From Leucosporidium creatinivorum (taxonomy: Eukaryota; Basidiomycota; Microbotryomycetes; Leucosporidiales; Leucosporidiaceae), in the NCBI GenBank assembly GCA_001600635.1, contig BCKL01000022.1, positions 372,001 to 436,000 of the forward strand: 64,000 nt of DNA, read 5' to 3'. Both the position numbers and the translations under genes were made by a program. The first letter of the stretch is position 1. Each line of letters opens with the position of its first letter. This document shows positions 6,941 to 55,317 of the stretch, in pieces. The notes under the pieces are model-generated. The model ran no database searches. It worked only from the letters and a program-made list of their open reading frames with translations, and was not told the origin of the DNA.

Positions 6941-8380
6941 TCATGCCTCGGTCTTCGGCGCGTCTGCTGCTTCTACGCTGATCTTCGTCGACTCCGCCTC
7001 AACCTCCATCCCATCGCTTCTCACCTCGTAGACGGCGTCTCCCTCATCTCCCTCCGCCTCGCCCTCGTCTTCGCCCTCCTCGCCTTCAACCTCGCCATCC
7101 TTCCCAGCCCCAGCCCTCCTCCCTTTCCTTCCTCCCGGTCCTCCATGCTCCATCTTCCTCGAAGGCATCACCGCTTGCAATGCAGTGGACCAGGATTGCG
7201 TCTCGACGTATTGGATGAGGATGTCGTAGACCTGGGGGGGAGAGGTCAGCGCCGAGCTCGAGCCAGCGAGGCGATGGAGGATGGAGAGGGAGAGGGAGAA
7301 GCAGGGAACACACCTGGTTAACAGTCAGCACCTTCCTCGTCGGCATATCGGGCATGTACTGTCCAATAGGTAGCTGGGCATGCTGGATCCCGTGCTGCTC
7401 GGCTTTATCGAAACAAAGCCTCTTGTAGCGGTTGCGGTCGACAATCCCGCCGAGGATGTAGGTCTTCCCCTCCTCGATGGAGGTGAGGACGTTCGGACTG
7501 TCGCCGGTGAGGTAAACGATGGACGATTTGGGGACGCGGGAACGAGGTTGGCCGGAGAGGGAGCCGATGGAGATGGGAGGGATGGAGGGCGAGGGAGGGA
7601 GAGTTGAGGGGGTGGTGGAGACGATAGGTGCGTCGGTCGGAGCGAGAGGAGTAGCGGGGGTGGGGAGGACGATCTCGCCCTTTGCCTCGGTCGAGGAGGA
7701 GGAAGAAGCGCTCGGCTCGGCCCAAAGTTCCTCGTAGCCTTCTTCCCACCACTCTACGCCCTTCCATGCCTCGTGTGGCTTATCCGGGGTGGAGTCGAAC
7801 TTGGCCTTCATCCTGCCGCTGAGACCTGAGATCATCAGGTCCAATGGACGGGAGGAGGCTCGGTTGGAGGAGTAGCAGAAGGCGAGTTGGGCAGCCATGG
7901 ATTTGACCTCCTGCTCAGCGACGGAGGGGGGTCAGCGATGAGCTTGAGCTGTAAAGGAGTAGCGAGACGTACCTTCTCCGTCATCTTATCATCAAAAGCA
8001 CAATCCACCACCACCCTCGCCTTGAACGGCTCCTTCTTGCCCGCCTTTGCCCTCTTACTCTCCGGCTTCTCCAACACGCCCAACTCGATCAACTTGCGCT
8101 TCTCAGCTGCCTTCTCCTTCTTCTGCGCGCGCTCCTTGGCCCGCCGAGCGGGCTTGGCAGCGTCGAAGGCAGCTTGCTTGAGCCAGCGCTTTTGGGCGTT
8201 CTTGGAGAGACCCGAGGGCATGTCGGCGAGGAAAGGGTTGGGGGTGCGGTCGTGCTGTGGTGTAGTAGAGGTGGAGGCGATGGGAACTGCTGCCTCGGAG
8301 GTCTCGGCGCTGGGAGCGGGAGCTGCTGCTTCGGCGGGGAGAGTGGTAGCTGGAGCTGGAGGAGGCGAAGGAGCTGACAT
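6941..8380 (-). CDS. TRM10: tRNA (guanine-9-N1)-methyltransferase
   Basis: Methylates N1 of G9 in tRNA using S-adenosylmethionine, as a SPOUT-fold enzyme. Exons 7973-8380, 7314-7910 and 6941-7231 give 431 residues. Family marks in order: a basic Ala/Lys-rich N-terminal region with LSKNAQKRWLKQ, VVVDCAFDDKM, YLTGDSPNVL, GGIVDRNRYK, LPIGQYM and VLTVNQVYDIL, the last three forming the cofactor-binding knot. A Pro/Ser/Thr-rich insertion of about 60 residues sits between WWEEGYEELW and SSIVYLTGD, and the C-terminus is a long acidic tail (GEVEGEEGEDEGE type) not found in yeast Trm10. Diverges from MPP10 with 190 bp between start codons, so the two may share a promoter. Confidence 0.93.
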
Positions 8381-8570
8381 GGCGCGGTGGTAGTGGGCGC
8401 TGCTTGTAGGGCGCTGTAGGACAGTAAGAGCGCGTAGTCGAGGTAGCAGCCGAGAAGCGATGATGATGAATGGCAGAAGCCAACCCTGCCGACTTGGGCG
8501 CCGCGACTTTTCGTCTCCTTCGCCAACAACAAGCTCGTCTCGACTTGCACCCTCTTCGCCGAACTTAGGA

Positions 8571-11500
8571 ATGGCCGGCGCCAAGAAGTCTTCGCCGAAC
8601 GGCAAGCAGAAGAAATCGCCCACCAAGGGCAAAGGAAAGGCTACAGCACCCGCCGCCGCCCCTCCTTCACCACCGCCCAAAGCTTCGTCTCCCCCTCCTG
8701 AAGTCGAGGACAACGACCTGTTGGACCTAGCAGAATCCATCACCGCCAAAGCTCATTTCCTCGCTCCTGGTCTCACCGATGCCGAGCTACAGCAAAAGGC
8801 GCAGGACGTCGTAAAGGCCTCTTTTGACAGAGGTGCGTTTTTTTGTGGTGTCCGAGAGATGTGGTGGCAGTTCAAGCCGCTAGGGAGGTCGACCGGACTG
8901 GTCAGAGTGCTGTAGGCTATCCCGCGGCGCTGCAGCGGCGTTTGTGGGGGAAGCGCGTCGAGTTGAAGGCCGCTGCGAAGGGGGCGACGAAAACGCGGCG
9001 CGTTGTAACGAGTAGGAGCTGTAGCATGGCAGGAACAGTCTCAGGGATATATCCAGAAGCCGATCAATCCGCTCGGGTTGTCGGCGCTGTGGAAGACCAC
9101 CTCGCTAACTTTCGGCGCTCCCCTTCGCAGCCCTCGCCTCCGAATCCATCTCCTTCCCCCACCTCCAATCCCTCTTGAAATCCCTCAACCCCTCCTCCGG
9201 TCCCTCTACTCGTTCCTCCTCCTCCCGCCCCGAATCGACATCCGATGAACCCTCGCTTTCGCTCTCCCAAACGCCGTTGGAGGAGCTCACGACCGAGGGA
9301 ATGGACCCCGAGATGATTTGGGAGCAGATGGAGATGAGGAGTGGGGTTGTTGTGGAATTGCTGGATGAGATGTTTGGTGGGGAGGGAGAGGAGGATGGTA
9401 GTGAGAGTGGAGAGCCGATGGCGGGAGAAGACGATGAGGATGAGGAGATGATGGAGGGTGAGGATGATTGGGGGGCGATGATGGGCGAGGGAAGTGAGGG
9501 CAGCGATGAAGAGGAGGAGGATAGCGAGGAGGATGACGGAGAGGAGGTCCCCTTCGAGGAGGAGGAGCCACATTTCCGCAAGCTCGGCGGACCAGAGGGG
9601 ATGAACTTTGACGGCGAGCCTGAGGCGGAGGATCCCGAAGCAGATGCTACTAAGGACCTGTCGATCGATTCGTTCGATAAGCCTGGATCTGGTCGGCCTT
9701 CGCGTCGGTGAGTCTTATCCTCTCTCTCCCTTCCCATCTCGGCGCCGACTGACCTCCCCTCTCTTGACGCTACTAGCGCCCCCGGTCCCGCCTCCGCCGT
9801 GGACGACACCTTCTTCTCCCTACACGACTTTCACCAACAGACCGACGAAGGCGAGTTCGAGATGGCCAAAGCTCTTCGCGGCGAGGTCGATGCGGACGAC
9901 GACGACGAGACGGCGGGAGAGGACGACTTTGATCTCTTCGCGCCGGTGGACTTGGGCATGGACGAGGATGGAGAGGAGGATTTGGATAACGCCGGTGAGT
10001 TTGAGCGCCGACTGAGCAGGAGATGAGTGGCTGCTGATTTGAGCGAGCGCCGAGCAGACATCATGTACAAGGACTTCTTCGAGCCTCCTCCCCGGCCATT
10101 GACCAAGGACAAGAAGGGCAAAGGCAAGGGTAAGGGTCGTGGCCCTCACGCCGGCGAGGAGGAGGTCGCCACTCCGGCCAAGAAGGCTCCCGCCGCCGCC
10201 GTCGCCGAAACTCCTTCCGCCGAAACACCATCAGGCAAGCGAGGCGTCCGCTTCTCCGAGGCCGTCAAGGTCAAGCTCATCGCCCCTCGAGGGAGCGAGT
10301 TCGATAAGCTGGTGAACAAGGTTGGGTGGGAGCAGGCGGAGGAGATCTTCAAGGCTAGGGAGGCTGAGCAGGCTGCTGCTGGAGACGAGGGTGAGGGTGA
10401 GGAGCTGGAGGAGGAGCTGCCGGTGGATGAGGAGGAAGATGAGGAGGACGTCGAGATGGAGGACGGTGAGGATGAGGAGGGAAGCGAGGAAGAGGGAGAG
10501 GAGGATGGCGAGTTTGAGAGCGAGGAGGATGATGTTGATGAGGGACAGGAGACGATTGAGCGGTTGAAGTCGTCGCTGTTTGACGATGACGACGAGGAGG
10601 CAGAGGATGGTGCTACTCCTGGTGAGCTTCTCACCGTTCCCCTTCCGCTCGCTCGCCGCTGACCTCTCCCTCCGCTTCAAACAGCCCAACAACTCTCCCG
10701 TCAAGAACGACGACTGCTGGCCCTCTCGTCTCAGATCGCCGCCCTCGAAGCCGAGAACGTCGGTACCAAGAACTGGGCGACCAAGGGAGAGGCCAAAGCC
10801 AAGGATCGGCCGACCAACTCGCTGCTCGATGAGGACCTCGAGTACGAGAGGACGGGCAAGGTCGTCCCTGTTATTACAGAGGAGACGACCAAGACGATTG
10901 AGGACCTGATCAAGAAGAGGATTCTGGATGTGAGTCGTCTTGCTCACTCTTCTTCTACGCCCGAGCTGACCTCCCCTCCCTCTCCGAACAGAACCAATTC
11001 GACGACGTCGTCCGCCAACGCGCCGTCGATCCCAACGCCTTCCTCCCCTCGCGCTTCATGGAGCTACAAGATTCCAAGTCCAACAAGTCGCTCGCCGAGA
11101 TCTACGAGGAGGACTTCCAGACGGCCAAGGATAAGGAGGAGGGCCGGACGGTCACGCATGAGTTGGACAAGGAGCTCGAGGATAAGCATGCCGAGATTGA
11201 GGAGCTGTTCGGTGAGTTGAGTGGCAAGTTGGATGCGTTGAGTAATGCGAGGTTTACGCCGAAACCGGTCAGTCTCTCTCCTTCCCCCTCTTTCTCCTTC
11301 TCACCGAGCCTTTCACTGATCTCTCTCGCGCGCGCTCTAGCCCAAGGCCACCATCTCAACGATCACCAACCTCCCGACCATCACCATGGAGTCCGCCCTC
11401 CCTACCACCACCTCCGCCGGCACAATGCTCGCTCCCGAAGAAGTCTTCGTCCCCGACCCAACCAACGAGGACCGCTCCGAGTTCACTCCCTCGCAGAAGA

Positions 11501-17350: not shown

Positions 17351-20096
17351 CTAGTACGCCTCCCTGAACATGTCCCTCGCCCTCAACTTTTCGTCAATCG
17401 CGGCGTAGCTGACTCCTCCCTTCCTTCCCAGCGGTACCCGCTGACTGTCCCGGGCCTCGACCACGTACTCCTTCTCCATCACGCCGTTCTCCCTCGCCTC
17501 GGCCCTTCCCTTGGCGAGCAGGTCGTTGAGCGACTCGCAACCGCCCGTTTGGACGACGACTCCGGCGACCGAGTCGACGAAGGAGGCCCACTCGCCGCCT
17601 GAGGTAGTAGCATTGGCGGAAGAGGCGGTGTTTGATCGGTTGTCCATGATGAGGACGTCGAGAACGTCGCTGTAGCAGAAGCCGAAGCGGGTTTCGGGCG
17701 AGGAGTTGGCCGAGAAGGAGTCGAGGACCGAGTCGACGGGGAAGACTGAGAGCAGGTGAGGAGGGTCAGTCTCAGTTGTAGAGGGATACAGCTGGAACCG
17801 ACTCACAGGTTGAGGTCGTCCAGTTTGCTGCCTTGCGTTCGGCTGGGCTAAGGCCGCTTCTAACTCGACCGAGCCATAGATCTGCCTTCGAACAGCAGCT
17901 GCAGCCTGGCGTTCTGCACATGTTGGACATGCGATTAGGAGATGGAGGCAAATGGGTGATTTCGAGGGTGGTGGCGTTGCGAGCGAGGACGACGAAGCGG
18001 TCGGAAAGGGCGGAAAGAGCGACGAGAGTGGAAGTCGACCATTCGTCGTCGAGGGGCTGTAGCAGGCGACGTGGTCAGCTCTGCGTTGCCTCAAAGTAGT
18101 ACAGTAGCCTTGTGGATCGAGAGCCGACTCACCATCTTGCAGTAGATCCACCCTCGCTCCCACTCTTCGACGAGCACCGTCTTTTTCTTGCTCGCCCGTC
18201 CGCGCCCTCCACTCTCCTTCTGCTCGATCCTCTTCACTTTCTTCCCGCAAGTAGCCATGTTTGAAGCGCAGAGCCAGATGCCGGCGAGGCGGAAAACGTG
18301 CTCGGCGGGCGTGTCGGATGGGCAGAGCCAGGCAGGGTAGGCGCCGAGAATGGCGAGACGACGGTTGCGGATGAGGGAGGCGAAGCTGCGAGTCATCGAG
18401 AGGGAGCATCCCGAGCAGGAGATCTGTGGCTCCGGGGGAACAAGCGAGGGTTAGCAAACCCATTCACCGAGCGAAGAAAGCGAGCGGGCGAGAAGGACTC
18501 ACGAACTGGTAGAACAGATCCCATCCCTCGCCAGGCAGATCCACCAAACTCGACTCCTTGTACACCCTCCCACCGAGCAGCTCCACATAGACTCCAGCTG
18601 AATCTTGGTCTCGGAACACATCCGCAATCGCATCGCCTAGCACACCAACGCCGAGCATCCCCGTCGCTTCCTCGCTCCGTCCTTTCTTGGTCGGCGCGGT
18701 CGACGATCTCGCAAACTTCATGCCTCTCCAAAGCTTGTCCACTTCCTCGCCGCAACGTGTGTCGATCCTGTCCTCCAGCAGGTCGAGGAACTCCTCGATG
18801 CTGGCGAGAGGCTCTCCATCCGCCGAGCTGGTAGTGAGGGCGAGGGGAGCGAGGGCAGAGGTGCGAAGGATGACATAGCGGAAGAGGGTGGAGATAAGAT
18901 TGTGCCAGGTAGATGAGGTGACGGTGCTGGGAAGGTCGGGAGGAGGGACGAGGTAGCCACGCAGGCGAGAGAGCTGAGAGGTCGGCCGAGAGTGCAGCTC
19001 ATGCTCATCTGACGCTGAGGGGCAGCAGGCAGGGGAGAGAAGGAGGTCGAGGTCGGACGACGCGGCGGAGGAGATCGAGTTCTTGCGAGCCGCCTTGCGT
19101 TGAGCCTTCTTCCGCTGGTTCTTGTTGAGGCTCGGCGTCGAGGGTAGATGTTGATTGGCGAGAGGAGGAGTAGGGGGAGGCGTGAGGGGGGCGTCGTTGG
19201 GAGAGGACTTGTTGGGGGACGGCTCGTCACAAATGAAGTTGGCGGTGGGAGTGGTCAAGATCCACTCGGCTTCGGACTTGGCGAGGGTGAGCTGGGAAAA
19301 GCGACGAGTGAGCTTCTTGAACCGCTCGTCGAGGGCAGCAAAGGACTTACAGCGTAGGCGCGTCGGTCCAGCGCACGCATGAGACGCTCCAATCTCTCGC
19401 CCTCCGTTTTGCTGCATGTGCAAGCGCGCCTGGTCAGCTTCGGCGGTGAAGTCGGTTGTCTGCTAGCGACTCACAGCGAATCAACGAAGGTCGTGTGACC
19501 CCAGTCACCTCCTGCATAGAACTGTTGGTGATGCTCGGCACGGGCGACGATGACGCGCTGGGTCAAACCCCACTTGAGCCGTGCAGCCTCACTCCAAGAT
19601 CGCAGCTGGCTCATGTCCTCCATCCCCGACACGGCATCGACAAAAGGAGGGAGCTTTTGATCGTCGAATGACTCGACAGCCAAAGTAAGACGCTTGTAGG
19701 ACTTGAGCAGTTTGGCCTGTTGGCAGCGTTGTGGAGTCAGCACTGTCGGTGAGGGAAGCCAGCTCGGCGAAGGGGGAGATGCTCACCTGTAGGCCTTCAT
19801 GCTCCTTGCACCACTTGCTGCCTAGCGTAGATGGAACCTTGGAGCAGAGCGAGCGTGTGTGTCTATCGTAAGCGAGGCAGTGCGTGCAAGATGGCGGGCA
19901 GGCGGGTCTGCGAGCAGGGGGAGGGATCGCCGAAGGGAGGGGGGTGAGCTCTGGCTTGTTGCTGACTCTGCTGCAACTCACGGGTGGTCGCAAAGCATGG
20001 CCAGGATAGGCGAGATGTTGTTGAAGGAGCTGTTGATGTCGAAGGAGCTGTTGATGCCTAGCGCGGTCGCAATCTTGAGGCAACGGCGCGGTACCT
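17351..20096 (-). CDS. Unrecognised Cys-rich protein (5' end uncertain)
   Basis: I do not recognise this protein. Exons that join in frame: 19982-20096, 19787-19907, 19475-19716, 19351-19411, 18503-19291, 18133-18423, 17807-18056 and 17351-17745, about 753 residues. The first exon lies further upstream or the start is the internal ATG near 20003; I could not settle this. The N-terminal part has a small cysteine/histidine cluster: CPPSCTHC, then RSLC, then KWCKEH, which looks like a zinc knuckle of the C...C...G..C..H kind. A basic stretch (KNQRKKAQRKAARK) follows in a Pro/Ser-rich linker, then two more cysteine groups, ISCSGCS and CRTPGCSCCSKADLW, and a hydrophilic C-terminus. It may bind nucleic acid; that is inference only. 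Converges with UBA1. Confidence 0.6.
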
Positions 20097-26717: not shown

Positions 26718-26844
26718 TGGGCGAGAGGGTCGTGTGTACATAGAGCGGACATCTTGCTTGTATCCTAGAGCGGTCGACCATCCCTACCTTGGCCCTCGAG
26801 CGAGCCAGCTGTCAGCTCTCGGCTTCGTTCTCCTCTGCTCTCCC

Positions 26845-27070
26845 TCTTCGGCGTTGCGTTTCGGGGCTGGCGGTGAACGCTGCACCTCGACCCAAAGTCA
26901 AGGTGCAAGGCCGGGTAGATGCTTTGTGGTGGGATCAGAGAGAATTTAAGATCATCGAGGCGGTCACCATGTGCTCAAACCACCCAGCCGGAGAGATCTA
27001 ACGGGATCCCCAGTCTGGGCGGCGAACGGAGCCTCCTCTAGCTCAAGAGGTGCCATACCATAGTCCGAAG
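26845..27070. repeat. Direct repeat, copy 1
   Basis: About 226 bp matching 28603-28827 in the same orientation. The first about 85 bp differ at several places; the last 140 bp (26931-27070) are identical to 28688-28827. The identical core can form hairpins, for example CCTCT/AGAGG at about 27037-27052 and CCC/GGG around AGTCT. It has no open frame in common with a known protein. Selection or recent copying of a noncoding RNA or regulatory block would explain the sharp conserved core; which one is unknown. Confidence 0.85.
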
Positions 27071-28602
27071 GTATATCTGTCACTCATGAAGGCAGCGAGG
27101 GCCTCTTAAAGTGAAGGGTACAGATCGGAGGCGACCGCCGAGCCGAGCAACTCATCGCCGAGCTTGCTTCGCTGTGCTGCTCCTTCGCAATTCTGGGACC
27201 CTCTGAAACTCGAAAGCGACACAAAAGGTGTATTTCTAGCTGTAAAACTCTCTACGGGTCGCCAACGCCCTTCATTCGCGAGAAAGCCCTCCGAACGAAC
27301 TTCATGCGCTCACCCTCCCGGCGAGGTGCTCCTCGGGGGCAGCCCAGCGACCGATGGGCCACCCCTTCGACGCCCTAGCGGCGACTATCAAGAGCTACAG
27401 TAATCTAAACAAACTTCTACCACCTCAACCGACAAGCCCAGCTCCCTACTGCAGCTCCATCGGCTCTCTCCTCCCCTTGATCTCCCAGCACGGTCATGGG
27501 ACGCCCGAGATCCTCCTCGTGAGCTAGCGGTGTGGGGGTAGAGGTGGGTCTTACGCACTGAGGCTGCCTGGGACATGATCCTCGCGACACTTGAACCGTG
27601 GCCTAGCTCGAGGATCTGGGTAGAGCAACCCGCCCGCCGAAGCAGGGAGGGAGTGCTCGGGTTTGGCTGGGAGGGTCGGGAGAGGAGAGAAGAGGGGTAG
27701 AAGGGGGGAGGGAAGACAGGTAGGTAGAGAGATGGCTATCAGTGAGGAGCGAGGAGGTAGCTGGGAGGAGTGAGGAGAAGCGGAAAGGAAGTGAGGCGAG
27801 TGAATAGGCAGGGAAGGATAGCGGGCGCGAGGGTGGACCCTCAGTCTGGAGGGAGGGATGCAGCTAAGCAGAAGGAGGATACAGCTAGCGAGGACAACTC
27901 TCTCTAGCAGAGCAAGATGTGGTAGGAAGGCAAGATACAAACGCTCCAACGACCGTTGACGACCTCTTTCTTTGCTTGAGACGCTCGGACCCCCGATTTG
28001 GCTCAGCAGCTCTCCAGGTGCAGCTAGGCTTCTAGGGGTATGGAGCGTTGCATCTGTAGCTTGATAGCGGTACTAGCGCCTCCCTGAGCGAAACAGCGGC
28101 CTCGGAAGCTACTCTTGGTGAGAAGTAGCTCAGACTCTTCGCCGAACGACTCGCTCTCGCTCTTCTCTGCCTTCACGAGCCAGAGTCGCTTCTTCTGCCT
28201 TTGTGCGTGACAGCGCAGACACCAGGCTCCCCTCTGCGAGCTCCCTGCACCCTTGACCATGAGTCTGCAACCCTTTGCACCTGCTCCAGCTCGTCGCCGA
28301 ATGCCTCCTTCCTGCTGCAGGCGAGTCAGCTCCTCGCAAGAGTCGCTCATACACTCGGGAAGCGGCTCTCTAGATATATTCGCGCTTACTTCCTGCAATC
28401 GATGTAGGAGAGAGACGAAGTGCATTGACAGCGAGAAGATAGACAAGAGGACTCCGAGGCGCCGACGGCCAATGCGAAGCATGCAGCCCGCCAACAGCAT
28501 CTCCATCAACCTCCTCGTACTCGTGACACTTTAGGTGGTCATATCAGGCCTGCCTCGGCGATATTCTGTAGTCGAAGAGAGAGCGAAAGGGTCAGCTCTC
28601 GT

Positions 28603-28827
28603 TCTTCGGCGTTGCGTTTCGGGGCTGGCGGTGACGCTGCACCTCGACCCAAAGTCAAGATGCAAGGCTAGGTAGATGTTTCGTGTTGGGATCAGAGAGA
28701 ATTTAAGATCATCGAGGCGGTCACCATGTGCTCAAACCACCCAGCCGGAGAGATCTAACGGGATCCCCAGTCTGGGCGGCGAACGGAGCCTCCTCTAGCT
28801 CAAGAGGTGCCATACCATAGTCCGAAG
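28603..28827. repeat. Direct repeat, copy 2
   Basis: Second copy of the 225-bp element, about 1.76 kb downstream of copy 1. The match ends abruptly after TAGTCCGAAG in both. Relative to copy 1 the left part carries a few substitutions and a one-base deletion, while the right 140 bp show none. Confidence 0.85.
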
Positions 28828-37800: not shown

Positions 37801-38045
37801 AGACGGTCTCGGGACCGAGGGGGAGGAGGTATCATGCGAGGTGTTTGGTTTGTGGGGGGTGTAAGAGGGGGTTGGATAGTGAGGCGAGGGTGGGGCAGGG
37901 AGGCGAGTTGAGGTGCGAAGCTTGTAGGGTGAGTTGCGACTTGCTGCCGGTCGCTAGCGAGGGACGCTGACTTGCTTTTGGGGTTGGGCAGAAGACGGAA
38001 GCGAGGTCGAGCTACAGAGGCAACGCTGTGCGCACGGTCGTCTGA
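34889..38045 (+). CDS. Multi-LIM domain protein
   Basis: Adaptor-type protein; LIM zinc fingers bind partner proteins, often at actin and polarity sites. Exons 34889-34958, 35023-35080, 35158-35428, 35489-35589, 35650-35719, 35781-35807, 35920-37089, 37148-37468, 37524-37928 and 37992-38045 encode 848 residues. The N-terminus is itself Cys-rich (CRRCGE, CKCGG). LIM 1 lies near 122-210 (WCCVACQSHF, CYSCSYC, CEACF), LIM 2 near 537-592 (CPACTKPLG, CFVCGGCGEQL), LIM 3 near 642-699 (CSACSKDLG, CFSCRGCGKGF) and a fourth, LIM-like, near 777-830 (CSGCSVRA, CLVCGGCKRGL, CEAC). Long Pro/Ser/Thr-rich linkers with repeated HARAWS/HTRAWS lie between LIM 1 and 2. Resembles paxillin-like Pxl1 in layout, but order and linkers do not allow a firm name. 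Exon 6 is 27 nt. Confidence 0.85.
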
Positions 38046-38184
38046 GATTCGAGGAGCGCCGAGCAGGGAGGCGATCGAGATGGGTCGAGCAGGTTCTCGT
38101 TGATTTACGACCCGAGTTGATGTGTATTATCACCGCTTTGCAATTTGGCTTTACTCGGACGTTGTGCTTTCGTACCCTGCGAGA

Positions 38185-38490
38185 GGGAAAGAGAAAGCGA
38201 GGTCAGCTTGAGCTTCGACTCGAGGTTGGCTGAGCCGAGGGGTGGGGGAAAGGCGGCGTACTGAAGCGAACTCCGGGGATATCTCTAGGGGTCGCGGAGA
38301 TGTGTAGTGATGCAGAAGTGTATGGAGAGGTAGTGCAGGGTGTGATGGAGGTGAGAGAGAGGCAAGAGAAGGGGAGAGGAAGGGTCAGCTCTTGCTCGGC
38401 GCCGAAGGAGGCTCCTCCAGCCTCTCTCAGTCGTAGTTACGCACCCCTTGGCCTTGCCCTTGCGTATGAAACCGGCGGGGGACCTCGTCG
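38185..38490 (-). pseudogene. Truncated duplicate of part of RPS23
   Basis: About 306 bp matching 41743-42055 of the RPS23 gene in the same orientation, with roughly 90 percent identity by eye and a small deletion near 38412. It keeps the 23-nt exon unchanged (38262-38284 against 41818-41840), part of the RKGKAKG exon and the intervening introns, so it arose from DNA and not from mRNA. It lacks both ends of the gene and cannot encode the protein. It lies between the LIM gene and BMT5, about 3.5 kb from the source. Flanks 38046-38184 and 38491-38620 hold nothing else I recognise. Confidence 0.88.
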
Positions 38491-38620
38491 GACGTCTGCG
38501 TACTCCAGCACTGCTCTCGCCTGTAGTAGTCATGCCTGAACCTCTCGTTCGCCATGCTCGACTCGACTCGTGTCGGGGTAGGCTCTAGCAAGATACAAGT
38601 TACAACGATCACGCTAATGC

Positions 38621-40212
38621 TCAGTCGTACAAGTCATCCTCGTCCTTCACCGGCACCAACTCGAACTCGTACGTCCTCATCAGCGCCTTGCCTCCCTTCC
38701 TCACGAGCTCTCCTCCAGCCCTTTCTTCCCGCTCGCTCCTCTCCTTAGCCTCCTTCTCCTCCCTACGCTTCTCTCCCCTTTCCCTAGCAGTGAGGGAAAG
38801 ATCGTCGTTCTTCTCCGAACTGACACCCTCCTTGAATCCAATCGTACGGCGATGCTCGTATCCCTCCCACTCGGCGGGGTCGAACTCGAATGAGCGAACG
38901 ACGAGGTAGTTGGGCTGAGCGGTCTTGGGCAGAGGACGGGGAAGGATGGAAGGAGCGAGGAGGGAACCACGGGTACCGAGATGGGTGAGGCACCAGAGGG
39001 AGTAGGGAGAGACGGTGCGGAGGGTGATGAGAACTGTTCCGGAGGTAGTGGGCGGTGGGGGTACGAGAGCGAGGTTGACAGGGAGCTCCTCATCCTCAGA
39101 GTAGACACCCTCGTCTTCAGGAGCGACGGGCTCCTCCTCGTCGTCCGAGTCGGCGCGGGTGCGCTTGCCCTTGACGGGAGCCTTGCCCTTGGTGAGGACC
39201 TTGCCCTTCTTGGCGGCGTTCGACTTGGCGAGATGAGGGTTGGTGGCGGAGGAGGTTCCGACGCGAAGAAGAGGGCCGACCGAGCGGAAGAAGTTGAGGA
39301 TGAGGGTCTGGTTGGCTCGAACGTTGCGGTCCTGGTCGGTGATACCTTGTCCTGTAGTCGGGAAAAGCTCCGGTCAGCTACTGTAACAGTCGAGAGTTAT
39401 CTCGGCGCTCCAACTCACCGACGTGAGGGAAGTTGAATACGACTCGGTCCCAGAGGCCCTTGTGCTCGGTGATGTCCCTGTTCTTGTGGAGGTTGGCAGC
39501 GTCCACTCCAAAGATGACCTTGGCTCCAGCGTCGCGGATGGCCTTGACGTGGACCATGAGGTCGGGGTACTTCTCCTCGGCCTCGGCTTGCGAGTCGAAA
39601 GCGGTCGCGATGAGAAGCTGCGGGGTGACGATGGGAGGGGACTGGATGAGGAGCGAGTGGGCGAAGGAGAAGTTGCCTATTGAGCAAAAGAGGTTAGCTG
39701 GTAGGGCGGTGAGTCTAAGAGAGCAAGTACTCACCTTCGCCGACGAGGAGGATCCGCTGGCCGAGAGCGTAAGGGACGGGTCCTCGGCGCTTCTTGACGA
39801 CGGGGGCCTTGGGGACGGCCTTGTCGTCCTTCTTCTGCTTTTTGCTAGCGGGCTGATCGTCATCAGAGTCGGAGTCGGAGTCCTGTAGCCCAAGAGCGGC
39901 GGCATCCTCGAGGTCCTTGGCCTTGGCCGCCTCAATGTCGCGCTCGCGCTGGCGCTGAACCTTGCGCTGCTTCTTGGCGCGAGCAAGGTCGAGTCCTCCT
40001 TCCTTGTTCTTCTGCTGCTCTGCTTTGGCAGCCTCGACCTGCTTGGCCCGAGCACGACGAGCGACAGCGTCCTGATCTTTCGCGAGCGCTGTTGAAACCG
40101 AGAGATCAGCCCTAGTCCCGTCGTGAACTGCCGGGCGGGGCTACGTACCATTCTGTAGCCTTCCCTTGGTCTTGGGAGCTCCTCCCCTTCTGTTCTTCTT
40201 GGCTCCACTCAT
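38621..40212 (-). CDS. BMT5: 25S rRNA (uridine-N3)-methyltransferase, Bmt5 family
   Basis: Methylates N3 of a uridine in large-subunit rRNA in the nucleolus. Exons 40149-40212, 39735-40088, 39419-39676 and 38621-39351 encode 468 residues. A basic Ala/Lys/Glu-rich N-terminal coiled region (AKQVEAAKAEQQKNKEGG) leads to the Rossmann-type domain (DUF2431): RILLVGEGNFSFAHSL binds the cofactor; then IATAFDSQ, FGVDAANLHK, WDRVVFNFPHVGQG and LILNFFRSVGPLL. An acidic insert and GTVLITLRTVSPYSLWCL follow; the C-terminus ends VPVKDEDDLYD. The introns fall inside the conserved GEG-NFSF and HVG-QG motifs and splice them correctly. Its start is 100 bp from the left arm of the inverted repeat, which must carry its promoter. 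Confidence 0.93.
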
Positions 40213-40311
40213 GTTAAAGGCGGGCTTGACGAGTATTTACTTCTGCTCAGCGCAAAGCGCCGCAAATTTCAGCGAGAGCTCTGCAGAGGATAGCCTACAG
40301 GGCTAGAATAG

Positions 40312-41062
40312 ATGTTGAACTGACGGGTCGAAGTGTAGCGAGCGGCGGAGGTGAGGCCGCTGAGGTGGAGAGAAGCGAAGAGTTGGAGGCGGAAGCGAGA
40401 CTTCGCATTTCGCGCAGGGTCGAGTACGGCGCTCCTCCGGTTCCAGCGCCGAGCTCTCAGTCGGCGCGCTTCTGAAAGATCTCACGTTCAACATTGAACT
40501 CCAATTGCTCCGAGGACCGTGCAGCGTTGTCTCCGAGCTCGGCGCGAGTGTTCGAGGGCGGGGCGGCCGCGAAGGAGCACCAGCTGCTTTCCAGGGCTGG
40601 GAAGAGCTCGTACTGCTGTGCAAGAGCAGGCAGGACATAAAGAGTATATCCTGGTCTTGCTGGCCGGCCGCGCTGACGAGGGAGGCGGCAGAGACCGCTT
40701 AGGAAACCTGATCTCGGCGATAGTTTGGCCTCGAGGGAGAGGGGCGGTGGAGGTCGTAGGGAGCTTTATGGTGAAGTGCAGAGTAGCGTCAGGGTAGTTT
40801 TGGCACTTCTTTTACGTCAGGAAGATTCTGCCAAGGAGCAAGAATGAGTCAACTCCTATTGCGCCGGGGCAGCCCTCTCTGCCAATTCCCTCGCCCTCCT
40901 CTTGCTCCGGCTTGTTCTTGCCTCATCGCTCACTATGGGCAAGTTACTTTCAGCCTGCATTCGATCTACTGCACCTGCGCCCCACCACACCACTCGTCCT
41001 CCTCCCGTACATCGACGACCCCTCCTCGCCCTTCTCCCAAGGCAAAACTCTGCCGACCTCGG
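40312..41062 (+). repeat. Inverted repeat, left arm (751 bp)
   Basis: Reverse complement of 43007-43757, same length, with only two mismatches seen (one near 40589 in CAGCTGCTTTCC, one near 40990 in CCACCACACC). It holds a copy of the RPS23 promoter and its first coding exon: ATGG at 40935-40938 followed by the GC donor GCAAGT, pointing rightward, but no RPS23 body follows on the plus strand. The left end lies 100 bp upstream of the BMT5 start, so it doubles as the BMT5 promoter. Confidence 0.95.
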
Positions 41063-41658
41063 CGCTCTGTGTGTATTCAGGGATGGATCAAACCGACCGT
41101 TCGACTGCCCCTATTTGAGGTTAAGCAAGAGAAGGAGTTCAGCTGCAGCGCCAGTTTCAACTCGAGACGGCCGAGCGTCGAGAGGGTTCAGGCCGAGATC
41201 ACACGCGCGCCGCTTCTCTTTCCTCCGCGCGGGAGATGCTGTGGACGTGCATCGTTGTCGTTTGTGGCCAGCCATTAGATAAGCGATCGCGCCATCGTCC
41301 CCTACAGAAGGGAAGCAAGCAGCTCGCTTCGGAGGACCTTGTCACCTCGGCTGAGCTCTTTCGCCCCGGCTCAGCTCAACGGCTCAAGTGTTCGCGCGGC
41401 GCGCGATCAGTCCTACTCGACTCGCCAAGACCGTGCCCTCGCTCGACGCCATCCGCACGCCCGAGCCACTGCGAAGTGCCCAGCCTCAGTCACCGAAAGC
41501 TCGTCGCTGATTCGTCGCTGACTGCACCGAGGTCGCGACCTCTCAGCCTCTCTCGCAACCCCAGGATCATGGTCCAACACAAAGCCCACGCCTAACATTC
41601 CATCGCAACGCAGATCGTACGCTGAGACAGAACTGAAAAGCAACCAAGCCAAGATCGT
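41063..41658. other. Loop DNA between left arm and RPS23 stop
   Basis: About 600 bp inside the inverted repeat's loop. No gene recognised; only short frames. It must hold the RPS23 terminator. Confidence 0.45.
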
Positions 41659-43134
41659 TTACGAACGGGGCTTCTCCTTCTTCTCCTTCCAGAGAGCGAG
41701 GAGTCCGACACCCGAAACCTTGACGACCTCTGTAAGTGGGGGAAAAGAGAAAGCGAGGTCAGCTTGAGCTTCGACTCGAGGTTGGCTGAGGCGAGGGGTG
41801 GGGGAGAGGCGACGTACTGAAGCGAACTCCGGGGATATCTCTGGGGGTCGCGGAGAGGTGGAGTGATGCAGAAGTGTATGGAGAGGTAGTCCAGGGTGTG
41901 ATGGAGGTGAGAAAGAGGCGAGAGAAGGGGAGAGGAAGGGTCAGCTCTTGCTCGGCGCCGAAGGAGGCTCGGGCCCTTTCCAGCCTTTCTCAATCATAGC
42001 TACGCACCCCTTGGCCTTGCCCTTGCGTCCGAAACCGGCGATGAGGACCTCGTCGTTCTCGTCCTGTAGGAGAGAGGGCGGTAAGCGCGAGAACGGGGGA
42101 GGGAAGCGAACGCCGAGGCGGAGGACTTACGACGAAGTTGAGGCAACCGTCGTTGGGAACGAAGGCGGTGACCTAGTGTAGTCGATTACGTAGGAAGACG
42201 AGAAGACGTGGAGAGGTGACAGGAAGGTGTAAGGGTCGTGAGAGAGCGAGGAAGGGTCGTAGGAGGGCGGAGAGGCAGCGGCTAAGTCAGCGATCGTCCT
42301 ACAACCTCTAGATCTCGTAAAACAGCAGATTCTTACTTTCTTTGCGTTCTTAATCAGCTGCACACGGACACACTTCCTGATGGCGGAGTTAGGCTGCTTG
42401 GCCTCAACTCCGACCTTCTCGAGGACGATTCCCTTAGCGTGGGAAGATCCACCGGTGGGCGACGAACGGTAAGCGGTTCCGAGGGCGCGCTTCTTGTAGT
42501 TGTTGTCGGCCTGGGAGGATGAAATAGAGGTGGAGGTTAGCGATAGCCCTCGGCGGCGATGTCGTCGAGCTGCTCCACACGAGCCTGGTTTCCCCCTCCA
42601 TGTATCATCGACCGCCTCGGTAGTTGCTCCACCCAAACCTCAAGCACCTGCTCCAGCGAGGCGTGGGAGCATACGATCCCCCGCAACGGCGCCACTCGAG
42701 CCTGCCTCAATAGCCCGGCGCTCCCTCCCGATGGCGACAGCGGCTGCCCCTGCAGCCTAATATCCTCCAAACTCGGCAGAGCACTCCTCCATCACTCCAT
42801 GCACCCGAACGTCACACCCAGAAGGCAGCAAAGGCCTCACCCAGCGGTTCTCCCTGCGGTCGTTGCGGAGCTTGCGTCCGGCGAGCAGTCCACGAGGCTT
42901 GCAGGATCCTGGTAACGTTACGATAAACGGTCAGCATTTCCCCCTTTCAACGCTGAACCTGCCCCATCCATTCTGCTGCTGTCCTGCGCCCGTAAGAGGG
43001 TCGATTCCGAGGTCGGCAGAGTTTTGCCTTGGGAGAAGGGCGAGGAGGGGTCGTCGATGTACGGGAGGAGGACGAGTGGTTTGGTGGGGCGCAGGTGCAG
43101 TAGATCGAATGCAGGCTGAAAGTAACTTGCCCAT
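41659..43134 (-). CDS. RPS23: 40S ribosomal protein S23 (uS12)
   Basis: Decoding-centre protein of the small subunit. Exons 43131-43134, 42841-42908, 42337-42510, 42131-42172, 42008-42063, 41818-41840 and 41659-41729 encode 145 residues, the family's exact length. Marks: [74 protein letters not shown], the decoding-loop region with [16 protein letters not shown] and [10 protein letters not shown] at the end. The first coding exon is just ATGG, followed by a GC donor (GCAAGT) and a 222-nt intron; it lies inside the right arm of the inverted repeat while all other exons are in the loop. MGSCKPRG fits relatives that start MGxxKPRG. The 332-nt second intron is long for this window. Confidence 0.93.
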
Positions 43135-43757
43135 AGTGAGCGATGAGGCAAGAACAAGCCGGAGCAAGAGGAGGGCGAGGGAATTGGCAGAGAGGGCTGC
43201 CCCGGCGCAATAGGAGTTGACTCATTCTTGCTCCTTGGCAGAATCTTCCTGACGTAAAAGAAGTGCCAAAACTACCCTGACGCTACTCTGCACTTCACCA
43301 TAAAGCTCCCTACGACCTCCACCGCCCCTCTCCCTCGAGGCCAAACTATCGCCGAGATCAGGTTTCCTAAGCGGTCTCTGCCGCCTCCCTCGTCAGCGCG
43401 GCCGGCCAGCAAGACCAGGATATACTCTTTATGTCCTGCCTGCTCTTGCACAGCAGTACGAGCTCTTCCCAGCCCTGGAAAACAGCTGGTGCTCCTTCGC
43501 GGCCGCCCCGCCCTCGAACACTCGCGCCGAGCTCGGAGACAACGCTGCACGGTCCTCGGAGCAATTGGAGTTCAATGTTGAACGTGAGATCTTTCAGAAG
43601 CGCGCCGACTGAGAGCTCGGCGCTGGAACCGGAGGAGCGCCGTACTCGACCCTGCGCGAAATGCGAAGTCTCGCTTCCGCCTCCAACTCTTCGCTTCTCT
43701 CCACCTCAGCGGCCTCACCTCCGCCGCTCGCTACACTTCGACCCGTCAGTTCAACAT
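43007..43757 (-). repeat. Inverted repeat, right arm (751 bp)
   Basis: Near-perfect reverse complement of 40312-41062. It contains the RPS23 promoter and start exon (43131-43134) in working orientation. Its outer end lies 77 bp beyond the amidase stop codon. The loop between the arms is 1944 bp (41063-43006). Confidence 0.95.
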
Positions 43758-43834
43758 GTGTTCGCGCGATGTACGAGGGCTGCCATCGGCGCCGAAGCCT
43801 GAGCAAGCAGCTTCATATGCCATGGTCGGACACG

Positions 43835-45942
43835 CTACCTTCCCAAAGCTTTCTCTATATCTCCAGCGAAGCCAAGGAGCTCGTCTTCACTGAACCTTCG
43901 GGGGTTGATGACCTGCAGGACGATGGGAGCATCCTTGTAGAGCTCGGGCGAATCTGTGCGCCAGGTGAGACGGATCAGTTCTCGCTTTGAGCCAGCGAAG
44001 AGGTGAAAGAGCTCACAGCCTTTCCAGTTCTCCCTATCGACATCGCTGACAGGAGTGTAGGCTTCAGCAACGGGTTTCGGATCCTTCTGCTCGTCGACGA
44101 CTCCGACCGGGAAGGTGTAGCAGGGCAGGTCGAGTAGAGACCAGAGGGTGGTGTAGGTGATGAGACTGCAGTTTCTTAATGGTCAGCTAAAGGCCTCGTC
44201 TCCAAGCAGAGCAAAGCCGAAGACTCACCCTCCAGGGCGAGGCGACTGAAGATGAGGGGCGGCGAGGTGAGGAGCAGTCGCGCAGATGATGGCGTCGATC
44301 GGTCGGCCGGTCTGCGTAGATGCAGCGGTAGCCAGCCACGTCTTGAGGAAGAGCTGGCGGTACGCGTCGCGCTTCTTGTTGAGCTGTAAGAGCATGAGGG
44401 TCAGCGGCGAGCTTCGCCGGAAGCCAGGTAAGGAAGGCGCACCTGCCAGGACTCGTGTATCGACATAGCAGGATGTTGAGATGTGAAAACTTGAGGCATG
44501 ATCGGCTGCGAGGTAGCAGATCTTCGTCAGCTGGATGCGGCGAAGGTGAGGGGAAGCGAGAGCGAACCTCGCCCGAATCACCGAGCCACTGCTTGACGTC
44601 CTCTCCGCCATCCGAGTCAAAGATCTGGCTGACGATCTCTTGAGCACCTGCATGATCCAATGGCTCCCACTCGATGACTATCGGCGAGAAGAAGTCAGCT
44701 TCGCCCTGCAACGCAACAGCGACGAGACAGCGCACCTTCATGACCCTCCTTTCGAAGAGCGGCCGTCACCTCGTCCAGCGCACGCTCGATAGGAGGATGG
44801 CACCTCACAAGCCCATCCCAGCGCATCACAGCAAAGCACTTTGGCCCCTCCACCTTCTCCTCCCTCCACTCCCGCTCGACGACTCGGCTATCCCACTCCC
44901 ACGGCCTGGCTCCCACCACCGCCTTCATAAACACCTCCAGGCTCCCCAAGCTATTTGCCATCGGGCCCAAAACACTCTCGAGCGCCTCGGCCCCCGCGAA
45001 AATGTTGCTGGCGCCTGCGTAGGGCAAACGACGAGACGTCGGCCGGAGCGAGTAGAGGCCGGTGAAGGATGCTGGCTTGCGGATGGAGCCGCCGAGGTCA
45101 GTCCCTACGCCGAGAGGTGAGCCTCGCATAGCAATGAGCGCTGCTTCGCCGCCCGAGGATCCGCCAGCAGTGAGCGAGGTATTGCTCGGGTTGAGCGTTC
45201 GGCCGAAGACGTTGTTGGTCGACTCATCGCTCTAGTGGGACAAAGGGTCAGCGTCCGTGTTCAAGAGCTGAGAGATAATAGTTCACTCACCAGGAGTGTC
45301 TGAGGAATGTTAGTGCGGCAGTGAGGGATGGCGCCGAGCGACTCGAGAAGCGAGACAATCACCGCCGAGCTCGACGAGATGTGGCCAATGCGGGATACGA
45401 AGCCTGCAGGGCGAGGCGGGTCAGACGGGGATAAAAGATAGAGTAGCTAGGACCCACCCATGGTTGACTCGACGCCCTCAATGTCGAACTGCTCCTTTAG
45501 CGAGATGGGAAGGCCGTGAAGGGGTCCGATAATCTCGCCGATCGTCTCCAAGTGCTGGTCGAGTTCCTTCGCGCGCTTCAAAGCACGATCGAAGAGCGTC
45601 TCCGTCAAGCAACATGTCTGGCAGGAGCGAAGGTCAGCCCGAACTTCGACGGAGAGGCTGAGAACTCACGAGCTGTTGAGCTATCGCCGCTCGCTTGCAG
45701 AAGGCGAGCGTGACCTGTTCCGAGCTCCACTCGCGGCTCCGGATGTTCTCCAAGATTACAGCTGCACTGTCCTGTTCCGTGATCTGCAGCTCGAGCTCGG
45801 TGAGGATGCTAGACGAGCGAGGGATGGAGCGGACGTCGCTAGGAGGGGCGGCGAGGGTCGAGGCGGGAAGGAGCCAGGCGGCAGGGATACTAGCCTGTAG
45901 TTGAGCTCGTTTGGCTGCTGCTTGGTCTTGCCATGAAGCCAT
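43835..45942 (-). CDS. Amidase signature enzyme (acetamidase / general amidase type)
   Basis: Hydrolyses carboxamides to acid and ammonia; substrate not predictable. Exons 45670-45942, 45458-45617, 45291-45403, 44736-45231, 44568-44677, 44443-44505, 44229-44383, 44017-44165 and 43835-43953 give 545 residues. The Ser-cisSer-Lys triad is complete: Lys132 in GLPISLKEQF, cis-Ser207 in AGGSSGGEAAL, and nucleophile Ser231 in GVGTDLGGSIRKPA, with the 24-residue spacing of fatty acid amide hydrolase. The N-terminal SSILTELELQITEQDSAAV and C-terminal LDLPCYTFPVGVVD match fungal acetamidases. No signal peptide. A role in using amides as nitrogen source is the common one in fungi. Diverges from the F-box-like gene B with 239 bp between starts. 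Confidence 0.93.
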
Positions 45943-46181
45943 CGTTAGGGCAGAAGGGAAAGAAGCGTCTCGGCCGAGATAAGAGATGAGCAGTCGTGGG
46001 AAGAGGGGGTGTCGAGCAGTCCTGGAGGCTAGAGAGCTACAGAAAAGGCGCTATCGACTGATTTGTAGTGCGATTGTCGAGTTGACTAGCGAGGGGTCGA
46101 AGCTCAAGCTCAAGAGACTCTCAGCGCTCCAGCTCTCTTTCTCTCCGCCTCGTCTCGCTTTCGACACGACTTTGCTACAAC

Positions 46182-54158: not shown

Positions 54159-55317
54159 TCATGTGTCGTTTTAGTAGTACTGCATTCGCATCTCGCACTT
54201 CCCTCGTTCGCCGTCATGCTCGGGCTCGGTGCCCCTCGGCGATGGGTAGCTGCTCAGCCTCTCCCAGCGGTCTCTCTTGCTTCCCTCTTCAGCGATCTGT
54301 GAAGCTCTGTTGTCCCTCCAGCACATCAGTCTACATCTCTGCACCCACTTTACCACTAACAGGAACTATCCTCGCTCCCCTCACTTGCACCTGTTCGGTC
54401 GAGTGTGCGAATCTTTGGCCAAGTCCGAAACCAGCAGCGCGCCTGGGTTTCTGCTTCACGCAAAACAACCCGACCCATCAAAAAGCACGAAGCAACCCCT
54501 CAGAGGTGCAGCTTGGAACTAGTTCCTAACAGCACCTCAATGACCCTGCTCCGTCGTATATGGCCGTCGCAGAGCAGTGCAGAGTTCAACTCATGCTAAC
54601 CTAGGGACTTGGGTGCGGCGCCTTACTAGCCGCGAGAGCTTGCTCACAATTGAGCTCTCGTGTATCACAAATATGCGTGAAGGGGTCGCAATGTCTCGCG
54701 GGACATTTCTTTGCTGTCGAGGTGCAGCATGGCAGGAGCTCGGCGCAGGGAGGCGGAGGATGCTCGAGAAGGGGAAGTTTTTCGAGGTTGGTGCAGCTGA
54801 GGGAGAGCCGAGGGGTGTTGGAGACGTTGTTGGACTGCTGCAGAATGTATTCTTGCTCCCACTACTCGTCATGTTCGTCTACGAGAGCAGAGCGCCGTGC
54901 GAAAGCCGAGATGCGGAAAGACACGCTCGAGAGCTCGCTGCAGAGATGCAGCAGTGCATCGACGTGCTGTAGAGTCGCCTCAAGTAGTGTTCATGCTACC
55001 CCTTTGCGAATAGGCCACCGACTGTGGTGCAGAAGCGAACTGAGACGTCTCGGCGCTCGCTGCGAAGCTCTCGACGGATTCTCGAGCGGGCACAGAAGAG
55101 ATCCTTGGTCCGAAACAACGTTGAATTGCTCGGTCAATCAGTCTGAGTGGTGTGGTAGAGTCGCGCTCCAACGGGTGGTGCAGCGAGGGAGGAAGAAGAG
55201 GTAGAGGAGGGGAGAGGGGGGAATCAATGCGAAGTCTACAGGGCGGCGAGGGATAAGACAGTAGGGAGTGGATGACTAGGTGGACATAGGTGATGAGAGA
55301 AGGGGGGTATGTCTAGT
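54159..55317. other. Convergent intergenic DNA, nothing recognised
   Basis: 1.16 kb between the stop codons of the CAP10-type gene and CLU1, long for a convergent gap here. Short frames on both strands show no family resemblance. No repeat seen with other parts of the window and no tRNA recognised. Confidence 0.5.

What the first reader, a model, noticed from the sequence alone, without database searches (positions are those of the whole stretch)
40312..43757. RPS23 sits in the loop of a 751-bp inverted repeat whose arms both carry its promoter and start exon
The arms 40312-41062 and 43007-43757 are equal in length and I find just two mismatches. The RPS23 start exon (ATGG) lies in the right arm, with an identical copy in the left arm at 40935-40938 pointing into the loop; exons 2-7 lie in the 1944-bp loop. 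Recombination between arms would invert the loop and splice the gene body to the other start exon, giving an intact RPS23 on the other strand. The locus is thus built so that inversion is harmless, and such an essential gene could exist in two orientations in one culture. High arm identity means recent origin or ongoing gene conversion.
Basis: partly seen in the sequence, partly recalled or inferred. Interest (0 to 1): 0.78.

Follow-up and report, generated by a model that had tools for sequence, protein, structure and literature searches.

The report
Ribosomal gene between near-identical inverted repeats
A fungal gene for an essential ribosomal protein sits between two near-identical mirror-image copies of its own start region, a real local duplication like others in this genome, which would leave the protein unchanged if the stretch flipped, although no flip has been seen.

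Summary
Arms 40312-41062 and 43007-43757 are 751 bp with exactly two differences around a 1944-bp loop. A search of the 27.7-Mb assembly finds the arm only at these two places and the main RPS23 exon at one. RPS23 has seven exons; exon 1 (ATGG, 43131-43134) and its upstream region lie in the right arm, whose inner edge falls inside intron 1. Flipping the loop in silico gives an identical CDS. Real flipping is untested: no reads, isolates or relatives were available.

(1) The left arm begins 100 bp upstream of the BMT5 start codon, so the arm may be an old BMT5/RPS23 divergent promoter; the two copies now point at each other across RPS23, which predicts antisense RNA. (2) The locus is not unique: a 314-kb sample holds three local inverted and three local direct duplications after exclusions. 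(3) Other pairs carry marks of gene conversion, so arm identity does not date the event.

Most likely: the scar of a small staggered-break inversion or local inverted duplication. "Built so that inversion is harmless" is not shown.

The parts
40312..41062 (+). Left arm of the inverted repeat: copy of the RPS23 upstream region, orphan start exon and first part of intron 1, pointing into the loop; its first base is 100 bp upstream of the BMT5 ATG
43007..43757 (-). Right arm: upstream region, start exon and first 124 bp of intron 1 of the intact RPS23 gene
41063..43006 (.). Loop, 1944 bp: rest of RPS23 intron 1, exons 2-7 and 3' flank; one place in the assembly apart from one decayed fragment
41659..43134 (-). 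RPS23 (uS12) gene: exons 43131-43134, 42841-42908, 42337-42510, 42131-42172, 42008-42063, 41818-41840, 41659-41729
40935..40938 (+). Orphan start exon ATGG in the left arm, followed by a GC-type donor (GCAAGT)
43131..43134 (-). Start exon ATGG of RPS23 in the right arm
40587..40587 (.). Arm difference 1 (partner 43482), 348 bp upstream of the start codon
40988..40988 (.). Arm difference 2 (partner 43081), in intron 1, +53 from the start codon
38621..40212 (-). BMT5-like rRNA methyltransferase gene, divergent to the orphan start exon; ATG at 40210-40212 read from the sequence, 3' end approximate
43835..45942 (-). Amidase gene, 3' end (TAG 43835-43837, read from the sequence) facing the right arm; exon structure not modelled
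38185..38490 (-). Decayed direct copy of part of RPS23 (most of exon 5, intron 5, exon 6, most of intron 6), about 92% identical, with deletions

Best explanation
This is a real, local, two-copy inverted duplication of about 750 bp that carries the RPS23 upstream region, start exon and the first part of intron 1. I think it most likely arose when RPS23, formerly divergent from BMT5 and sharing its upstream region, was inverted by staggered breaks: single-strand breaks at both ends of the shared region, fill-in, and rejoining of the flipped gene body. That gives each junction its own copy of the region and keeps BMT5 and RPS23 intact. The arms can since have exchanged sequence by gene conversion, as other local repeats in this genome appear to have done. 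A crossover between the arms would flip the loop with no change to the protein. Shown: the repeat, its copy number in the assembly, the gene model by sequence, the harmlessness of a flip at CDS level, and conversion marks in other pairs. Inferred: the shared promoter, the inversion origin, and present-day conversion or flipping at RPS23. I hold the core claim (real local inverted duplication, passive, flip-tolerant) at about 0.85 and the inversion origin at about 0.45.
For: Two places only in the assembly search; abrupt edges; two differences between arms, so not a plain copied stretch of assembly. RPS23 is intact through the inner edge of the right arm, so that junction is taken as ancestral. 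The arm's outer end, read toward BMT5, has a pyrimidine-rich tract (0.71 over 75 bp at -101..-175 from the BMT5 ATG; 5% of windows reach this). RPS23 and amidase have similar tracts (0.73, 0.72) in the 75 bp before their ATGs. The upstream region BMT5 would have had if the left arm were a plain insertion shows at most 0.61. If the left outer and right inner junctions are both old, each arm keeps one old junction, as staggered-break inversion predicts; Drosophila inversions show such duplications (PMC5080602, passages read). A calcipressin gene is flanked by a comparable inverted repeat, about 93% identical. Conversion marks: a direct pair in C1 with all 7 mismatches near the ends and 404 bp clean (0 of 20000 permutations), and the inverted pair at 54360-55072 with a near-identical core and a 144-bp outer flank still recognisable (score 56 versus a maximum of 15 in 300 random pairs).
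Against: The pyrimidine tract is weak evidence: about 5% of windows, many windows looked at, only three genes compared, and for BMT5 the 75 bp right before the ATG are not pyrimidine-rich (0.53). Direct local duplications are as frequent as inverted ones in the sample (3 and 3), which suits orientation-blind local duplication better than inversion. No relative was available to give the ancestral gene order. Not all pairs show conversion marks: calcipressin pair P 0.15, RPS23 fragment P 0.50, and the RPS23 arms cannot be tested (2 mismatches, P 0.65).
Confidence: 0.45

Rival explanations
1. Local duplicative insertion without inversion: a 751-bp piece around the RPS23 start was copied, in inverted orientation, into the BMT5/RPS23 intergenic region during repair or replication (template switching or break-induced synthesis). 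BMT5 then acquired a borrowed upstream region.
For: The sample also holds local direct copies (window 26834/28592 and 38185/41740; C1 113403/115915). Two of them were searched in the assembly and show two places each, so a general local copying process seems to exist. The 38185-38490 RPS23 fragment is itself such a copy. In C. elegans newborn duplicates were often adjacent and inverted (PMC2728529, passages read).
Against: It leaves BMT5 cut 100 bp from its ATG, and the implied older upstream region lacks the pyrimidine tract seen in the two other genes checked (weak).
Confidence: 0.38
2. Active flip-flop: the arms recombine often enough that both loop orientations coexist in cultures or among isolates.
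For: Near-identical 751-bp arms 1.9 kb apart; the flip leaves the CDS letter-identical; conversion marks between local repeats are visible in this genome. Inverted-repeat flip-flop is established at yeast mating-type loci, including arms that hold the 5' end of a gene in Ascoidea rubescens (PMC6692504, passages read).
Against: No direct evidence: one assembly, one orientation, arms found only twice. Arm identity is equally explained by recent origin. No benefit of switching is apparent because both orientations encode the same product. Compatible with either origin model, so not exclusive.
Confidence: 0.2
3. Assembly artefact: the second arm was created by the assembler or by chimeric template molecules.
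For: The assembly has gaps: one 4946-base N run in the C1 stretch, 936 N in the C22 stretch, isolated N bases. A conserved 5.8S primer sequence has no exact match, so rDNA may be missing. These would fit a short-read assembly, in which repeats are risky; the sequencing method is not known to me.
Against: The arms differ at two sites, and both have unique sequence on either side without gaps (the window has a single N, at 14746). Other local pairs show graded identities from about 92% to 98.5%, which an assembler does not invent.
Confidence: 0.08
4. The left arm is kept because its promoter makes an antisense transcript that tunes RPS23 output.
For: The two upstream copies differ at one site (-348) and point at each other across the gene, so antisense initiation is expected from sequence alone.
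Against: No expression data; a by-product of duplication is simpler.
Confidence: 0.05

Closest known systems
Inverted duplications at staggered-break inversion breakpoints (Drosophila subobscura O4, O8; PMC5080602, passages read)
   Same: A segment flanked by inverted copies of one breakpoint region, with genes or gene parts inside the duplicate.
   Different: There the ancestral arrangement is known and the inversions are chromosomal; here the segment is 1.9 kb with one gene and no ancestral order could be checked.
Flip-flop mating-type switching between inverted repeats in yeasts (PMC6692504, passages read)
   Same: Inverted repeats in a fungal nuclear genome, with part of a gene inside the arms (5' end of MATa1 in Ascoidea rubescens, part of SLA2 in Ogataea).
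   Different: Those invert larger regions (44 kb between the MAT genes in A. rubescens, about 138 kb in Komagataella phaffii) and change mating type, with both orientations seen; here the product is the same either way and only one orientation is known.
Newborn inverted gene duplicates (Caenorhabditis elegans; PMC2728529, passages read)
   Same: Short-span, local, often structurally incomplete copies in inverted orientation.
   Different: Here the copy holds only upstream region, start exon and part of an intron, so it makes no second gene.

Membership tests
Staggered-break inversion scar | Inverted duplicates flank the rearranged segment | tested here: met
Staggered-break inversion scar | Each duplicate keeps one ancestral junction | tested here: inconclusive
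   Right inner junction taken as ancestral because RPS23 is intact; left outer junction only weakly supported by composition
Staggered-break inversion scar | Relatives carry the segment in the opposite orientation with one copy of the duplicate | not testable with these tools
   The genome tool holds no relatives of this genome; genome contigs returned its best 80 of 495 relatives, archaeal by title apart from one titled as a bacterium of an archaeal family; viral contigs gave one partial hit
Inverted-repeat flip-flop switch | Long, near-identical inverted repeats around a unique loop | tested here: met
Inverted-repeat flip-flop switch | Orientation changes which product is made | tested here: not met
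   CDS letter-identical after in-silico flip
Inverted-repeat flip-flop switch | Both orientations observed | not testable with these tools
   One assembly only; no reads or isolates
Transposable element or foldback element | Terminal repeats belong to a dispersed multi-copy family | tested here: not met
   Two places found in the assembly
Transposable element or foldback element | Target-site duplication at the outer edges | not tested
   No dedicated test was run; flanks were only inspected by eye
Local segmental duplication | Few-copy sequence repeated within a few kilobases, with abrupt edges | tested here: met

The most novel reading that the evidence does not exclude
This fungal lineage keeps generating small gene-scale inverted duplications that gene conversion then keeps alike, so that many genes, the single-copy RPS23 included, are invertible and exist in both orientations within populations, with facing near-identical promoters producing antisense RNA.
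Probability: 0.13. Interest if true: 0.75.

Novelty: new member of a known kind. Interest (0 to 1): 0.42.

Why it matters
If the loop flips, a single-copy ribosomal protein gene would be found in two orientations without loss of product, a clean natural assay of how often inverted repeats cross over in a fungus. Even without flipping, the locus suggests how a break inside a single-copy gene can be survived when the rearrangement duplicates the start of the gene. It also creates two near-identical promoters facing each other, which can be tested directly by stranded RNA-seq. The other local inverted and direct pairs found in 314 kb suggest a record of small rearrangements that could be read genome-wide.

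Tried and rejected
Transposon or foldback element: rejected on copy number, as the arm search finds two places only. Structured RNA at the locus: no Rfam match at E 0.5 in 38000-46000. Strong hairpin at the outer end of the arm as a cause: the DNA fold of 40300-40520 is no better than shuffles (z 0.07). Decayed homology beyond the RPS23 arms: not significant. Organism identification by rRNA: two Rfam searches errored and a 5.8S primer sequence had no exact match; the species was not identified. The bacterial promoter/terminator scan is not informative for a fungus and was not used. Literature: no paper in the held library has RPS23, inverted repeat, inversion and promoter together; a basidiomycete search gave one paper, seen only in the listing. 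That RPS23 is essential is recalled from yeast and comes from no call.

Rows dropped from the survey count (pairs of at least 200 bp within 10 kb). (a) The 323-bp 84% inverted pair L026:2112-2434 / 8422-8738: the left copy lies in a long ORF (65590-66471 in continued window coordinates), and I judged the pair to be paralogous genes; the right copy was not examined for ORFs. (b) The C1 inverted pair 8269-9183 / 19033-19929 (79%, spacing 9850), which also matches further places. (c) The C1 direct pair 181104-181348 / 187829-188077 (82%, spacing 6480), not examined. With all three included the counts would be 5 inverted and 4 direct. For C1 the sensitive settings were printed only for spacings under 8 kb; from 8 to 10 kb only the stricter list applies.

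Full report
Observation. The inverted repeat is as described: arms 40312-41062 and 43007-43757, 751 bp each, loop 1944 bp. A base-by-base comparison in register finds two differences, at 40587/43482 and 40988/43081. A DNA search of the window's own assembly (27.7 Mb, 63 contigs) finds the arm at these two places (the tool calls counts of repeats lower bounds, but both first-look candidates were scored). The loop matches itself and one fragment about 92% identical, and the large RPS23 exon matches one place.

Gene anatomy. On the minus strand the exons are 43131-43134 (ATGG), 42841-42908, 42337-42510, 42131-42172, 42008-42063, 41818-41840 and 41659-41729. They translate to a full uS12 protein beginning MGSCKPRGL and ending KEKPRS, and the ORF holding exon 3 matches solved fungal uS12 chains. 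The splice sites are read from sequence; no transcript was available. Intron 1 is a GC-AG intron of 222 bp, and the inner arm edge (43007) lies within it, so each arm carries upstream region, start exon and the first 124 bp of intron 1. Flipping the loop in a script and splicing from the left-arm start exon gives the same CDS letter for letter. The arm differences are 348 bp upstream of, and 53 bp downstream of, the start codon.

Neighbours. To the left is a BMT5-like methyltransferase gene on the minus strand (PF10354) whose ATG is at 40210-40212, so 99 bp separate it from the left arm. To the right is an amidase gene (PF01425), also on the minus strand, with its stop at 43835-43837, 77 bp from the right arm. 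The left arm is therefore the present upstream region of BMT5, and its orphan start exon points into the loop against RPS23. The two near-identical upstream copies face each other. If both are active, RPS23 is overlapped by an antisense transcript; this is a prediction, not a result.

Is it unique? I surveyed C1:1-200000 and C22:342001-456000, 314 kb of 27.7 Mb including 5,884 N. Counting pairs of at least 200 bp within 10 kb, and dropping three pairs named under Tried and rejected, there are three inverted pairs: the RPS23 pair; a pair around a calcipressin gene (C1 147114-147684 / 149375-149967, about 93%, loop about 1.7 kb; Pfam calcipressin 8.3e-17); and window 54331-55073 / L026:373-1114 (743 bp, 98.1%, loop 9.3 kb). 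There are three direct pairs: window 26834-27070 / 28592-28827; window 38185-38490 / 41740-42055, the RPS23 fragment; and C1 113403-113864 / 115915-116376. With the three dropped pairs the counts would be 5 and 4. Of the six pairs, three besides RPS23 were searched in the assembly with one of their copies, and each shows two places. The RPS23 fragment shows as one extra place in the loop search. The 54331 pair was not searched genome-wide.

Gene conversion. In the C1 direct pair all 7 mismatches lie close to the two ends, leaving 404 of 462 bp clean (0 of 20000 permutations). In the window 26834 pair a 141-bp run is clean (P 0.0017). In the third inverted pair the core is near-identical, but for 144 bp beyond its outer edge the flanks still align with a score of 56, where 300 random pairs reach at most 15: I read this as an old repeat whose core was refreshed. 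Against this, the calcipressin pair (P 0.15) and the RPS23 fragment (P 0.50) show no significant clustering, and the RPS23 arms cannot be tested with two mismatches (P 0.65). So conversion between local repeats probably happens in this genome, and arm identity cannot be read as age.

Origin. Two models fit the arms. In a staggered-break inversion each arm keeps one ancestral junction; in a plain inverted copy one arm keeps both. The right inner junction is taken as ancestral because RPS23 is intact. For the outer junctions the only evidence is composition: read toward BMT5, the outer end of the arm has a pyrimidine-rich tract (0.71 in 75 bp; 5% of windows), resembling the tracts just upstream of RPS23 and amidase (0.73, 0.72), while the alternative ancestor has none above 0.61; but the 75 bp right before the BMT5 ATG are ordinary (0.53). 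That favours an ancestral BMT5/RPS23 divergent pair, weakly. Adjacent co-regulated ribosome-related pairs are described in eukaryotes (PMC3500266, seen in the search listing with the start of its abstract). The equal number of direct local copies favours general local duplication instead. I put inversion at 0.45 and plain duplication at 0.38.

Flipping. Inverted repeats in fungal nuclear genomes can flip: yeast mating-type loci do so, and in Ascoidea rubescens the 2-kb arms contain the 5' end of MATa1 (PMC6692504, passages read). A template-switch route that both homogenises arms and inverts spacers is described for short repeats (PMC8604942, start of abstract in the search listing). Nothing in the data at hand shows that RPS23 flips.

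Artefact. The assembly has gaps and the 5.8S primer sequence has no exact match, so caution is due. Two differences between the arms, unique sequence on both sides, and graded divergence of similar pairs make an artefact unlikely (about 0.08).

Verdict. A real local inverted duplication that leaves RPS23 intact and flip-tolerant, one of several local duplications in this genome. Interesting as a natural case of a single-copy gene between facing copies of its own start region; ordinary in kind.

Noticed in passing
window 38185-38490: Decayed direct copy, about 92% identical, of most of RPS23 exon 5, intron 5, exon 6 and most of intron 6, downstream of BMT5; exon 6 is unchanged, the exon 5 part has a 2-bp deletion.
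   Followed up: partly
window 54331-55073 and L026:373-1114: Inverted repeat of 743 bp at 98.1% around a 9.3-kb loop; core near-identical, outer flank still alike over 144 bp (score 56, random maximum 15), read as a mark of gene conversion. The right arm lies just beyond the window.
   Followed up: partly
L019:7114-7684 and L019:9375-9967 (C1 147114-149967): Inverted repeat of about 590 bp at 93% around a calcipressin (RCAN) gene; the right arm includes the end of its last open reading frame.
   Followed up: partly
L016:3403-3864 and L016:5915-6376 (C1 113403-116376): Direct repeat of 462 bp at 98.5% flanking open reading frames that overlap a multi-copy family (F-box-like by eye, no Pfam hit at E 0.05); all 7 mismatches near the ends.
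   Followed up: partly
window 26834-27070 and 28592-28827: Direct repeat of 237 bp at about 96%, mismatches confined to the first 96 aligned columns.
   Followed up: partly
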